Positions 6,282-32,200 of a stretch of 64,000 nt of DNA are shown piece by piece. This DNA comes from Allokutzneria sp. A3M-2-11 16 (GTDB taxonomy: Bacteria > Actinomycetota > Actinomycetes > Mycobacteriales > Pseudonocardiaceae), in NCBI RefSeq assembly GCF_024213555.1, contig NZ_JANAVO010000001.1, positions 3,286,001-3,350,000 on the forward strand, in the 5' to 3' direction. The position numbers and the translations under genes are program-made. Numbering within the stretch: position 1 is the first letter of the stretch; the number at the start of each line of letters is the position of its first letter. The notes below the pieces were generated by a model, which was not told the origin of the DNA, made no database searches, and worked only from the letters and a program-made list of their open reading frames with translations.

Positions 6282-9200
6282 ATGGTGGCTGAAGGCGAGA
6301 AGGACCAGAACCGGACCGGACGCGATGTAGCTAACGAAGATTCGCTTGCGGGATCGAGCATCGCCATCGTCGGCATTGCCTGCCGGTTGCCGGAAGCGGG
6401 TGATCCGGTCGCCTTCTGGGAGCTGTTGCGCTCGGGTACCGACGCGATCTCGCAGACCTCCGCCGGGCGGGCCGGGCGCCTCGCCGAGGTGGACGGGTTC
6501 GACCCCGCTTTCTTCGGCATCTCCCCGCGCGAGGCCGCGGCCATGGACCCGCAGCAGCGGCTGGCGCTGGAGCTGAGCTGGGAGGCCCTGGAGGACGCCG
6601 GGCTGCCCGCTGACTCCCTCGCCGGGCAGCGCGCCGGTGTCTTCGTCGGCGCGATCGGGGACGACTACGCGACGCTGCTGCACCGCGCGGGTGCCGGGGT
6701 CGGGCAGCACACGCTGACCGGGCTCAACCGCGGCATGATCGCCAACCGCGTGTCCTACCTGCTGGGCCTGCGCGGGCCGAGCATGGTTGTCGACAGTGGA
6801 CAGTCGTCCTCGCTGGTCGCCGTGCACATGGCGTGCGAGAGCATTCGCAATGGGGACGCCGACATCGCCCTCGCCGGTGGTGTGACCCTGAACCTGGCGC
6901 CGGAGAGCACGCTCGGCGCGGCCGCGTTCGGCGCGCTCTCCCCGGACGGCCGTTGCTACACCTTCGACGCCCGCGCCAACGGCTATGTCCGTGGTGAGGG
7001 CGGCGGTGTCGTTGTCCTGAAGCCTTTGCACAAGGCACTCGCGGACGGCGACCCGATCTACTGCGTCGTCGCGGGCGGCGCGGTCAACAACGACGGTGGC
7101 GGCGACACGCTGACCACTCCGGACCGCGCGGGCCAGGAAGACCTTCTGCGAGCCGCATATCGGCGCGCGGGCATCGACCCGGCCACCGTCAAGTACGTCG
7201 AGCTGCACGGCACCGGAACCCGGGTCGGCGACCCGGTGGAGGCCGGAGCCCTTGGCGCGGTGCTCGGCGCGGCGCGGCCGTCGGACGCTCCGCTGCTGGT
7301 CGGCTCCGCCAAGACCAACGTCGGTCACCTCGAAGGCGCCGCGGGCATCACGGGCCTCATCAAGGCCGCGCTCGCCGTGCGCAACCGGGAACTGCCGCCG
7401 AGCCTGAACTTCGAGACGCCCAACCCCGACATCGACATGGACGCCCTGAACCTCCGCGTGCAGACCGAGCTGGGGCAGTGGTCGGGCGAGATCATCGCGG
7501 GTGTCTCCTCGTTCGGCATGGGCGGCACCAACTGCCACCTCGTGCTGACCGAGGCGCCGCAGCGCGAAGCGGAGCAGCCTGGGGCCGCGCCGAGCATCCT
7601 GCCCTGGGTGCTCTCAGCGAGGTCGCCGAAGGCGTTGCGCGCACAGGCTTCCCGCCTCTTGTCCACTGTGGACGAGGAGGATGTGCTGGACGTCGCGAAC
7701 TCCCTCGCCACCACGCGCGCGGCGCTGACCCACCGCATCGGAGTCGTCGGCCGCGACCGGGACGAGCTGATCAGCGGGCTGCGTGCGTACGCGGACGGCA
7801 TGCCGCACGCGGCGGTCGTCGAAGGACGCGTCGGCGAGGGCAAGACGGCGTTCCTGTTCACCGGCCAGGGCGCTCAGCGCGTCGGCATGGGGCGCGAGCT
7901 GCACGCCGCTTTCCCGGTCTTCGCAAAGGCTTTCGACGAGATCGTCGCCGCGTTCGACATGTCGCTCGACGAGATCATCGCCAACGGCAACGAACTTGAC
8001 CAGACGCAGTACACGCAGCCCGCGCTGTTCGCGATCGAGGTCGCGCTGTTCCGGCTCGCGGAGAGCTGGGGACTGCGTCCGGACTACCTGTCCGGGCACT
8101 CCATCGGCGAGATCGCGGCGGCCCACGTCGCCGGAGTCCTTTCCTTGACGGACGCCGTCAAGCTGGTCACCGCGCGCGGCCGGTTGATGCAGGCGCTGCC
8201 GACCGGCGGCGCGATGGTGTCGCTCCAGGCGAGCGAAGCCGACATCCTGCCGCTGCTCAACGACAAGGTGAGCATCGCGGCGCTCAACGGTCCACAGTCG
8301 ACGGTCATCGCCGGTGACGAAGAGGCCGTGCTCGCGATCGCCGCCGCGAGCGGTGTGAAGTCCAAGCGGCTCACGGTGTCCCACGCGTTCCACTCGCCGC
8401 TGATGGAACCGATGCTCGACGAGTTCCGCGAGGTCGCCGCCTCGCTGACGTACTCGCCGCCGACGATCCCGATCGTTTCGGGGAACGAGGTCGAGCAGTA
8501 CTCCGCCGACTACTGGGTCGAGCACGTGCGCGGCACCGTGCGCTTCTACGACAGCGTCCGTTTCCTCGAAGAGAACGGCGTCACGCGCTACCTGGAACTC
8601 GGCCCGCACGGAGTGCTGACCGCGGCGGCCAAGGAGTCCTTGAGCAGCACGGACGGGATCACGCTCGTTCCGTTGCTGCGCAAGGACCGCGCTGAGGACG
8701 AATCTGCGCTGAGCGCCTTGGTTTCCTTGCACACCAGCGGTGTTGCGGTCGACTGGAAGTCGTTCTTCGCCGCCACCGGAGCCCGTCGCGTCGCGCTGCC
8801 GACCTACGCCTTCCAGCGGCAGCGTTACTGGCTCGATGCCGCTGTTGCCACTGGCACGGCGGTGGTCGCGAACGAGGTGCCCGAGCCGGAGACCGAGGAT
8901 CTGCCGATCCTGTGGCAGAAGCTCGCCGATGTCCTGGAAGAAGAGGAGCAGCAGCGGATCTCACTGGACATGGTGCGGGCGCTGGTGGCGTCCGTGCTCG
9001 GCTATGCCGATCTCACGGCGGTCGATCCGGACCTGCCGTTCAAGGACCTCGGGTTCGACTCGCTGACCGCCGTCGAGTTGCGCGATCGACTGTCCACCGG
9101 GACCGGGTTGAACCTGCCGAGTTCGTTGCTGTTCAACTACCCCACGCCGCGGCGGCTCTCCGAGCACACCTTGGACCAGTTCCTGGGGCGCACCGAAGAG

Positions 9201-29239: not shown

Positions 29240-32200
29240 ATGTCGGACTCGAACCAGCAGGTCGTCAACGCGCTGCGCGCGTCTCTGAAGGAGACCGAGC
29301 GGCTGCGCAAGGCCAACCAGCAGCTCACCGCCGCTTCCCGCGAGCCCATCGCGATCGTGGCGATGAGCTGCCGGTACCCGGGCGGGGTCGCCTCGCCCGA
29401 GGACCTGTGGGACGTCGTCGCCGAGGGCCGCGACGTCGTCGGCTCCTTCCCGGCCAACCGCGGCTGGGACCTGGACGCCATGTACGACCCGGATCCGGAT
29501 GTGCAGGGCACCTGCTACACCACGCAGGGCGGCTTCATCTACGAGGCCGATCGGTTCGACCCGGCGTTCTTCGGGATCTCCCCGCGCGAGGCCGCGACCA
29601 TGGACCCGCAGCAGCGGCTGCTGCTGGAGACCTCGTGGGAGGTCTTCGAGCGCGCGGGCCTGACTCCCCAGGCGCTCAAGGGAACCCCGACCGGGGTGTT
29701 CGTCGGCGCGGCCTACCAGGGCTACGGCGAGAGCTGGCGGGACGCGCCGGACGGCCTCCAGGGGCACCTCGTCACCGGCATGTCGACGAGCATCATCTCC
29801 GGCAGGATCGCTTACACACTGGGACTTGAGGGCCCGGCGGTCACCATCGACACCGCCTGCTCGTCCTCGCTCGTCGCGATCCACATGGCGATCCAGGCGC
29901 TGCGCCAAGGGGATTGCTCGCTCGCGGTCGCGGGTGGCGCGGCGATCATCTCCGCGCCGATCTCACTGGTCGGTTTCGCGCGGCAGCGCGGGCTCGCGGA
30001 AGACGGGCGCGGCAAGGCTTTCGGCGCGGGCGCGGACGGCATGGGCCTCGGCGAGGGTGCCGCGGTCATCCTGCTGGAGCGCCTGTCCGACGCGGAGCGC
30101 AACGGGCACAAGGTGCTCGCGGTCATCAAGGGCAGCGCGCTCAACCAGGACGGCGCCTCCAACGGCATCGCCGCGCCGAGCGGTCCCGCGCAGCGCAAGG
30201 TGATCAACGCGGCGCTGGCCAACGCACAGCTGAAGCACGAGCAGATCGACATGGTCGAGACGCACGGCACCGGCACCAAGCTGGGCGACCCGATCGAAGC
30301 GCACGCGCTGCTGGAGACCTACGGCCAGGCCCGCACCGACGACCGTCCACTGTGGATCGGATCGGTGAAGACCAACATCGCGCACGCGCAGGCCGCCTCC
30401 GGCGTGGCGGGCGTGATCAAGACCGTGATGGCCTTGCGACACGGAGTTCTGCCGAAGTCGCTGCACGCCGAGGAACTGTCCCCCTTCATCGACTGGGACA
30501 CCGGCAACGTCGAGGTCCTGCGCGAGCAGCGCGCCTGGCCCACGACCGGGTCGCCGCGCCGCGCCGCCGTCTCCTCTTTCGGCCTCAGCGGCACCAACGC
30601 CCACGTGATCTTGGAGCAGGCGCCCAAGGCTCCGGAGGAATCGGACGAGCGCAACGAGCCTTCGCACACCCCGTGGCTGCTCTCGGCTCGAAGCGAGTCG
30701 GCCCTGCGCGAGCAGGCTCAGCGCCTCCGCGACCACATGGAGAACAACCCCGGCCTCAAGCCGTTGGACGTGGCGTTCTCGCTGGCGACGACTCGGGCCC
30801 GCTTCGAGAACCGCGCCGTGGTGCTCGGCAAGACCCGTGCGGATCTTCTGTCCTCTTTGGACGCTCTGGCCAAGGGCGAGCCCGCCGGGTCTGTGGTGCG
30901 CGGCGCGGTCACCGACATCAACCGCACGGTTTTCGTCTTCCCCGGCCAGGGCTCGCAGTGGGCGGGCATGGCCAACTCCTTGCTGCGCACCTCACCGGTC
31001 TTCGCCGCGCGGATGCGGGAGTGTCACGACGCGCTCGCTCCCTTCGCCGACTGGCGGCTGCTGGACATCTTGGACGGCGACGACGCCTCCTGGATGGAGC
31101 GGGTCGACATCGTCCAGCCCGTTCTCTGGGCGGTCATGATCTCCCTTGCCGCTCTGTGGCAGTCGCACGGCGTTCACCCCTCTGCCGTTGTCGGTCACTC
31201 TCAGGGTGAGATCGCGGCGGCCGTCGTCGCCGGTGCGCTGTCCATTGAGGACGGTGCGCGCGTGGTGGCCTTGCGCAGCAAGACGATCAGTGCGATCGCC
31301 GGTCGCGGCGGTATGATGTCGGTTGCCCTGTCACGCACGGACGTGCAGCCCTGGTTGGACCGTCCGGGCATCTCCCTTGCTGCGGTCAACGGTGCGAACT
31401 CCGTTGTGGTGTCGGGCGAAACCTCCGCCCTCGACGAGCTTCAGGCAGCCCTGGAGGCCGAGGACATCCGCGTCCGCCGGGTGAACGTGGACTACGCCTC
31501 GCACTCCGCGCACGTCGAGGAGATCCGCGACCAGATCCTCGAAGTCCTCGCGCCGGTGTCTCCGCGCACCCCGGAGATCCCGGTGTACTCCACGGTGACG
31601 CGCGAGGTGATCGCCGGGCCGGAGATGGGCGCGGACTACTGGTACCGCAGCCTCCGGCAGACCGTCGAGCTGGAGGACATCACCCGCCTGCTCATCGAGC
31701 ACGGTCACGAGGCTTTCGTCGAGACCAGCGCGCACCCCGTGCTCCTTCCGGCGATCCAGGAGACCTTGTTCACCGCCGAAGACCCGCTTGCGGGGTCGAG
31801 CATGAGCACAGCAAGGGTTTCCTCTTATGTCACGGTGGGTTCGCTGCGCCGTGACGAGGGCGGGTTCGACCGGTTCCTCACCTCGCTGAGCGAGCTGTAC
31901 GTGCGCGGCGGCGCGGTGGACTTCGACCCGGTCTTCGCGGAGTCCAAGGCCCGCAAGGTCGAGCTGCCCACCTACGCCTTCCAGCGGCAGAACTACTGGA
32001 TGGAGTCCTCCGCGACCGTCTCCGCCGTGACGGCCGCTGCTCCCGACGACGACTTCTGGTCCGCCGTCGAGACCGAGGATCTGCACGCGCTGGCCTCGAC
32101 CCTGGGTATTGAGGCCGAGGATTCATTGGGCGCACTGCTGCCCGTGCTCGCGAAGTGGCGCAAGGCGAAGCAAGAAACCTCCGCTGTGGACTCACTGCGC

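What the first reader, a model, noticed from the sequence alone, without database searches (positions are those of the whole stretch)
6336..31803. A ~28-bp hairpin element inserted in frame five times in the PKS genes
Seen at 6336-6361, 12639-12666 (inverted), 21787-21814, 28994-29021 and 31776-31803. The core GACCCGC-TT-GCGGGGTC folds with one bulged G. Three copies are identical over 28 nt, far above the identity of flanking sequence. All four forward copies are read in the same frame (EDPLAGSS or EDSLAGSS); the inverted one reads MLDPASGSS. Stem position 3 is C-G in three copies and T-A in two, a compensatory change. This resembles coding-sequence palindromic elements such as the Rickettsia RPEs, here in an actinomycete megasynthase. 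I know of no description of it.
Basis: partly seen in the sequence, partly recalled or inferred. Interest (0 to 1): 0.8.

Follow-up and report, generated by a model that had tools for sequence, protein, structure and literature searches.

The report
Tiny hairpin DNA invading bacterial genes
A 33-base hairpin-shaped piece of DNA has spread dozens of times into the genes of soil actinobacteria, including housekeeping genes and polyketide megasynthases, adding whole codons wherever it survives inside a gene, so that the proteins can still be made.

Summary
The five copies belong to a dispersed family: 52 copies in the host genome (Allokutzneria), 33 and 133 in two congeners, 0 for the reversed control. 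It occurs in 62 of 249 sampled genomes of the family; a phylum sample gave one weak hit in 197 others. The unit is about 33 nt, CCGAAGANNYGCTTGCRGGNTCGAGCATCGNCA, with a six-pair stem and one bulged G; 99.5% of cells pair over 129 copies, with strong covariation that partly changes amino acids. Four window copies are absent from both relatives at aligned sites; one is shared with one relative. Net insertion is a multiple of three at 40 of 40 coding sites (25 exactly 33), against 10 of 18 outside or at gene edges. Targets resemble R^YNGA, like the element's own start. The consensus is open in six frames, yet 42 of 44 sense copies read EDPLAGSS and 29 of 33 antisense copies LDPASGSS. It works like Rickettsia palindromic elements or intragenic REPs, but size, target and host differ; no mobiliser was found. 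Seven paper searches listed no description.

The parts
6334..6366 (+). 33-nt hairpin element, copy 1, abutting the start of the ketosynthase (KS) match in the first PKS ORF (core = residues 25-32, KS match from residue 32); reads EDSLAGSS
   Evidence: a degenerate copy lies at the same place in G002; absent from G001 with net 42
12634..12666 (-). 33-nt element, copy 2, inverted, inside the dehydratase (PS-DH) match; gene strand reads MLDPASGSS
   Evidence: absent from G001 and G002, net 33 in both
21787..21819 (+). 33-nt element, copy 3, in the C-terminal part of an acyltransferase (AT) match
   Evidence: absent from G001 and G002, net 33 in both
28994..29026 (+). 33-nt element, copy 4, behind the carrier (ACP) match, towards the C-terminus
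   Evidence: absent from G001 and G002, net 36 in both
31776..31808 (+). 33-nt element, copy 5, in the C-terminal part of an AT match, about as far from its end as copy 3 (36 and 35 residues)
   Evidence: absent from G001 and G002, net 33 in both
6264..19262 (+). host ORF of copies 1 and 2 (modular PKS)
19272..24050 (+). host ORF of copy 3 (modular PKS)
24355..29226 (+). host ORF of copy 4 (modular PKS)
29033..39193 (+). host ORF of copy 5 (modular PKS); my gene caller starts it at 29237

Best explanation
It is a non-autonomous mobile DNA repeat of about 33 nt whose conserved feature is a short imperfect hairpin with one bulged G. SHOWN: it is dispersed, present or absent at the same site in close species, adds a unit of mostly 33 nt at targets that resemble R^YNGA (the start of the element itself), forms tandem arrays mostly at 33 bp, and keeps its base pairs even where that changes the peptide. 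SHOWN: copies found in genes keep the frame and nearly always lie in one of two registers, which encode bland peptides ([16 protein letters not shown]). INFERRED: copies are made in trans by an unidentified enzyme that recognises the single-stranded bulged hairpin and joins it to a short R-YNGA core, in the way TnpA-REP or IS200/IS605 enzymes handle hairpin ends (that mechanism is recalled); selection then removes insertions that shift the frame or put Arg- or Cys-containing peptides into the protein. In proteins the insert is translated and tolerated, often at termini, linkers and loops; I infer no benefit to the host. Odds: about 0.93 that it is a mobile hairpin repeat; 0.55 with the trans-acting enzyme, which is the figure given. 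I lowered that figure on re-checking because the rivals left no room for 0.85 and the junction and RT results below are less clean than I first wrote.
For: Copy numbers 52/33/133 against control 0. 111 arrays queried in 1.9 Mb of three Allokutzneria genomes gave 90 comparisons at 74 sites. Coding sites: 25 of 40 net 33, all 40 multiples of 3 (39 distinct places); outside genes or at gene edges 10 of 18 (9 of 15 if an array counts once). A doublet against a single copy differs by 33, against an empty site by 66; one degenerate doublet by 42. Target G at core position 0 in 27 of 30 net-33 sites, in a wider set 31 of 41 anchored on the left and 20 of 25 on the right. Similarity of empty targets to the element start peaks at the insertion point: 5.05 of 12, next 4.20 at offset -3, the other offsets 2.56 to 3.90 (left-anchored set). 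Covariation: 89 cells changed on both sides against 25.7 in shuffles, 0 of 500 as high; bulge at col 18 instead gives 48. Changes at pairs 10-20 and 11-18 alter amino acids (P to S, G to E; P to L). Registers 42 of 44 sense and 29 of 33 antisense (40 of 42 and 28 of 32 after removing places counted twice); other genera 28 of 30 and 15 of 17; target availability predicts at most 0.65 and 0.34.
Against: No mobiliser was found. Y1 transposase (PF01797) is absent from G000 and from 6 of the 7 other copy-bearing genomes (G001, G002, G012, G019, G021, G032) but present in G030, which has one copy there. Reverse transcriptase is absent from 6 of 18 copy-bearing genomes (G001, G002, G012, G095, G125, G171), yet present in 12 of 18, against 6 of 18 genomes chosen as copy-poor, so a loose link is not excluded. 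Unit ends are soft: the left -3 base follows the target in 20 of 34 sites (11.4 by shuffling), carried by G002 (15 of 20) and not by G000 (3 of 12). As free DNA the 37-mers fold no better than shuffles (z -0.04, 0.27, -0.43), and the full covarying hairpin is not the predicted minimum. In one search the number of pairs changed on both sides (3) is reached by 215 of 500 shuffles. No strand bias between halves of G002 (Fisher p = 0.29; 64 of 133 copies, origin not located). The first 20 nt right of sense copies are unusually diverged, which this model does not predict.
Confidence: 0.55

Rival explanations
1. Copying by host replication or repair: the hairpin stalls DNA synthesis and the nascent strand switches between short R-YNGA matches, adding one unit without any dedicated enzyme.
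For: Target similarity to the element start; doublets and triplets at 33 or 32 bp; right-flank divergence of sense copies (183 of 280 identical against 251 of 280 on the left; 65 of 246 against 21 of 252 polarised columns) could be error-prone synthesis; no mobiliser found.
Against: Does not by itself explain dispersal to unlinked loci in both orientations, nor near-restriction to one family. The right-flank excess is not significant in antisense copies (p = 0.47).
Confidence: 0.25
2. A site-specific recombinase integrates a small excised (circular or multimeric) form whose crossover core is R-YNGA.
For: Left core is element-like and right core often target-like; tandem arrays in the same orientation.
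Against: A 33-nt double-stranded circle is physically implausible (recalled); exact exchange of the core is seen in only part of the sites.
Confidence: 0.12
3. A conserved protein motif or regulatory DNA site that arose in place or spread by gene conversion between PKS modules.
For: Near-constant peptide registers; some copies at apparently paralogous places in PKS modules.
Against: Unrelated hosts including RuvC, UvrC, DapF, RimO, MurD, an Lhr-type helicase and Pnkp; copies absent in orthologues; amino-acid-changing compensations; 23 of 116 copies intergenic.
Confidence: 0.03
4. A translational bypass or splicing element removed at RNA or ribosome level.
For: Hairpin inside genes, some probably essential (essentiality recalled).
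Against: 40 of 40 coding sites are multiples of three and the register is filtered for bland peptides, which neither process would need.
Confidence: 0.02

Closest known systems
Rickettsia palindromic elements (RPE); also coding palindromes of Wolbachia and Methanocaldococcus (seen only as titles in a reference list)
   Same: Palindromic repeats fused in frame in unrelated, often conserved genes and also found between genes (passages of PMC2229807, and PMC10969869)
   Different: RPEs are 105-150 bp in Rickettsia; this is about 33 nt in actinobacteria, with an R^YNGA-like target, tandem arrays and a six-pair bulged stem. RPE sequences were not compared here.
REP sequences (GTAG and CGTC superfamilies), a minority intragenic, including DNA repair genes
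   Same: 20-40 nt imperfect palindromes in many copies; the CGTC type seems to lack a dedicated transposase (passages of PMC3733652)
   Different: No GTAG or CGTC tag (GAAG here), no RAYT-type gene in G000, G001, G002, G012, G019, G021, G032, most copies in genes, head-to-tail arrays mostly at 33 bp; in that paper's text 'actinobacteria', 'actinomycet', 'streptomyces' and 'saccharopolyspora' have 0 occurrences
MITEs / IS200-IS605-derived elements
   Same: Short, non-autonomous, dispersed
   Different: No terminal inverted repeats seen, no exact target duplication in most sites, no Y1 transposase in most copy-bearing genomes tested

Membership tests
Rickettsia palindromic elements (RPE) | Palindromic repeat inserted in frame in unrelated genes | tested here: met
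Rickettsia palindromic elements (RPE) | Length about 105-150 bp | tested here: not met
   about 33 nt; RPE size from passages
Rickettsia palindromic elements (RPE) | Sequence homology with RPE families | not tested
   no RPE sequence was compared
REP (RAYT-associated) | GTAG tag next to an imperfect hairpin | tested here: not met
   GAAG in most copies of A1, GACG or CAAG in a few; one copy in G002 has GTAG
REP (RAYT-associated) | RAYT / Y1 transposase gene in the genome | tested here: not met
   PF01797: none in G000, G001, G002, G012, G019, G021, G032; present in G030 (one copy of the element); the search rang in 9 of 60 genomes and 6 of 14 controls
REP (RAYT-associated) | Mostly extragenic | tested here: not met
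   77 of 116 copies inside predicted genes, 16 at gene edges, 23 intergenic
REP (RAYT-associated) | Hairpin with a bulge or mismatch kept by covariation | tested here: met
MITE | Terminal inverted repeats and target site duplication | tested here: not met
   palindrome is internal; left and right cores differ in most sites
Retroelement spread (RT-dependent) | Reverse transcriptase in copy-bearing genomes | tested here: not met
   PF00078 absent from 6 of 18 copy-bearing genomes, including G002 with 133 copies on one contig; present in 12 of 18, and in 6 of 18 copy-poor ones
IS91-like Y2 transposition | Y2 transposase | tested here: inconclusive
   0 of 36 genomes but also 0 of 14 controls

The most novel reading that the evidence does not exclude
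A minimal mobile hairpin of about 33 nt that codes through, perhaps among the smallest known, open in all six frames as consensus and of codon-multiple length, moved by an enzyme class not yet known to mobilise such repeats, and inserting next to itself to build tandem arrays.
Probability: 0.4. Interest if true: 0.85.

Novelty: new variant of a known kind. Interest (0 to 1): 0.68.

Why it matters
In-frame palindromic elements are best known from intracellular bacteria (recalled), where mobility is hard to test. Here is a compact family in actinobacteria that include named culture-collection strains, with many presence/absence differences between species about 90% identical, and with a unit, a target and a register rule. 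That makes the old question of how such elements move, and how much peptide insertion proteins tolerate, directly testable. It also matters for annotation: copies lie in AT, DH and linker regions of polyketide synthases and in proteins such as UvrC, RuvC, DapF and MurD.

Tried and rejected
Mobilisers: RAYT/Y1 transposase (absent from most copy-bearing genomes, present in G030), RT (absent from 6 of 18, loose association not excluded), Y2 transposase (control silent, inconclusive). A linked mobiliser gene: of the 14 largest neighbour clusters shown, none reaches more than 4 genus groups, and none looked like a mobiliser from its sequence start or size (judged by eye); around 14 stretches of 11 genomes (12 with arrays, from 9 genomes) the 4 clusters found join only 2 stretches each. 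Carriage: no plasmid match, two weak partial phage matches (E 0.5); 4 viral contigs matched the degenerate pattern, two of them alike, with flanks unlike the element. Rfam: no match to the element in window 5500-32500. Extra thermodynamic stability: none. Strand bias in G002: none clear. A shared motif in the diverged right flank: only weak k-mer excess.

Rows dropped: 14 loci were judged chance by host or surroundings (L082, L090, L092, L095, L097, L100, L106, L109, L120, L124, L133, L137, L153, L158) and left out of A1 and; L109 lies in a Pseudonocardiaceae MAG and may be a true degenerate copy. The 11 Allokutzneria loci were left out. 129 of 156 distinct copies were aligned, as a rule one per array. 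Copies within 400 bp or 300 bp of a stretch's end were skipped; admits up to 4 mismatches to any of five variants, so a few relics or chance matches may be counted. Two listed G002 copies that are second members of doublets were left out of the strand test.
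Full report
OBSERVATION. The five copies are at the stated places and as described. The genome holds 55 matches to the 17-mer core (up to 2 mismatches; reversed control 3) and 52 to the 24-mer (up to 3 mismatches; control 0). The window lies at G000:C11:3286001-3350000. Contig lengths of the congener G001 equal those of Allokutzneria sp. NRRL B-24872, so the genus is Allokutzneria. The family name Pseudonocardiaceae rests on the names of its members (contigs of G021 and G032 equal those of Kutzneria viridogrisea and Labedaea rhizosphaerae) and is recalled, not looked up.

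ANATOMY. In 51 aligned matches from G000 loci, a few of them chance-like, conservation runs from about -3 to +33 around the core. Sites with and without the copy put the unit at about 33 nt, CCGAAGANNYGCTTGCRGGNTCGAGCATCGNCA, between R and YNGA. The ends are uncertain by one to three bases: the left -3 base follows the target in 20 of 34 sites (shuffled 11.4), a signal from G002 (15 of 20) and not from G000 (3 of 12); on the right, positions 31 and 32 follow it in 22 and 17 of 34 (16.9 and 9.5). The target has G at core position 0 in 27 of 30 net-33 sites, 31 of 41 in a wider left-anchored set and 20 of 25 right-anchored. Empty targets match the element start best exactly at the insertion point (left-anchored set: 5.05 of 12; next 4.20, three bases away; the rest 2.56 to 3.90). 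Since the element begins like its target, insertion beside itself would give head-to-tail arrays; 2 to 4 units at 33 bp are seen in several genera, 32 bp in two intergenic arrays, 36 bp once (L285).

STRUCTURE. On 129 copies the stem G-C, A-T, N-N, C-G, [bulged G], Y-R, G-C pairs in 99.5% of cells; 89 cells changed on both sides against 25.7 in shuffles (0 of 500 as high), covariation score 0.351 against 0.156; the number of pairs changed on both sides (3) is not exceptional (215 of 500). With the bulge one base earlier there are 48 double changes. The N-N pair occurs as C-G 78, T-A 30, A-T 9, T-G 8, G-C 2, other 2. The pattern required Y and R at one pair but not that they match, and left the N positions free. 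Some compensations change the peptide (CCG to CTG, CCG to TCG, GGG to GAG), so the hairpin rather than the peptide is conserved. The free energy of 37-mers as DNA is unremarkable.

MOBILITY. The window cluster has orthologues in G002 (90%) and G001 (88-89%). Copies 21789, 31778 and 12664(-) are absent from both (net 33); 28996 is absent from both (net 36); 6336 is shared with G002 as a degenerate copy and absent from G001 (net 42). In 1.9 Mb of three genomes 111 arrays were queried; 90 comparisons at 74 sites resulted, some the same place read from two records; in 16 comparisons the other genome also holds a copy. Net lengths at 40 coding sites: 33 (25), 36 (5), 42 (4), 66 (2), 21, 24, 39, 45 (1 each), all multiples of three; outside genes or at edges 10 of 18 are. 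One coding place (G001:C46 = L146) is counted twice and two intergenic arrays are counted per unit; distinct figures are 39 of 39 and 9 of 15.

GENES AND FRAMES. With my own codon-usage gene calls, 116 copies fall as sense internal 27, antisense internal 26, N-terminal 13 + 4, C-terminal 4 + 3, gene edge 16, intergenic 23 (four places counted twice). Sense copies are in the EDPLAGSS register in 42 of 44, antisense copies in the LDPASGSS register in 29 of 33 (40 of 42 and 28 of 32 without the doubles). In other genera it is 28 of 30 and 15 of 17 among 68 arrays, 21 of them outside predicted genes; some of these are orthologous places in sister species. The consensus unit in tandem shows no stop in any of six frames; the four disfavoured frames give Arg-rich or Cys-containing peptides ([44 protein letters not shown]). 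Phase counts of R-YNGA-like targets in genes predict at most 65% (sense) and 34% (antisense), so selection after insertion is the likely cause. Of 10 hosts run against NCBIfam, RuvC (TIGR00228), UvrC, DapF, RimO, MurD, a PRK09751 helicase (Lhr type, name recalled) and Pnkp pass a curated cut-off; a FadB/FadJ-like, a biotin-carboxylase-like and an oxidoreductase-like protein do not. In the window, copy 1 abuts a KS match, copy 2 lies inside a DH match, copies 3 and 5 in the C-terminal part of AT matches, copy 4 behind an ACP match.

DISTRIBUTION. Phylum sample: 1 weak hit (32.8 bits) in 197 genomes other than the own.

MOBILISER. Not found. Y1 transposases are absent from G000, G001, G002, G012, G019, G021 and G032 while the search rings in 9 of 60 genomes; G030, with one copy, has them. 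RT is absent from G002 (133 copies, one contig) and five other copy-bearing genomes, but present in 12 of 18 copy-bearing against 6 of 18 copy-poor genomes. No neighbour gene recurs widely.

UNEXPLAINED. The 20 nt just right of the element are more diverged than the left side: filled-specific changes 65 of 246 against 21 of 252 columns, 15 sites; in 36 sites, sense copies 183 of 280 identical right against 251 of 280 left (p = 0.004), antisense 252 against 269 of 320 (p = 0.47), others 97 against 100 of 120. Several sites lie in one PKS cluster and are not independent. This may be error-prone synthesis or relaxed constraint in loops.

LITERATURE. Searches (open-licence PMC only; the best 20, or 8, listed of 1,536, 170, 289, 146, 28, 53 and 8 papers) showed no description by title or abstract start. 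I read passages of PMC12306157, PMC3733652, PMC2229807 and PMC10969869, not the whole papers; PMC186582 is not held. The filing as a coding palindrome of the RPE/REP kind rests on these passages: it works like them, but fails the size test for RPE and the tag, RAYT and location tests for REP.

Noticed in passing
L080, L125, L152, L169 (JOAA01 contigs) and L093, L164: The genome titled Rhodococcus rhodnii NRRL B-16535 is probably mislabelled: L080 and L125 align at 96% and 90% to Kibdelosporangium aridum loci, and G117, whose contig length equals JOAA01000001, shares genus g28 with G199, whose contig length equals one of K. philippinense.
   Followed up: partly
right flanks of sense copies, e.g. 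window 21823-21842, 29030-29049, 31812-31831: About 20 nt directly 3' of sense-oriented copies are much more diverged than the 5' side.
   Followed up: partly
window 10188-10256, 25411-25479, 30296-30370 (-): Rfam ASpks (RF01782) matches antisense to PKS genes; probably just conserved PKS coding sequence.
   Followed up: no
G002 621107 and 627329, G000:C7 27558: Antisense copies with similar flanks at apparently paralogous places in different PKS modules, with different element variants, suggest a recurrent insertion site.
   Followed up: no
L280 (both ends; same contig as L113), L279 (end), L140 (end): Draft contigs end inside arrays of the element, so long arrays may be under-represented in draft genomes.
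   Followed up: no
G000:C22:192948-193004 and G002:C1:8330385: The RuvC C-terminal region carries two units in the window's genome and one in G002, a difference of exactly 33 bp.
   Followed up: no
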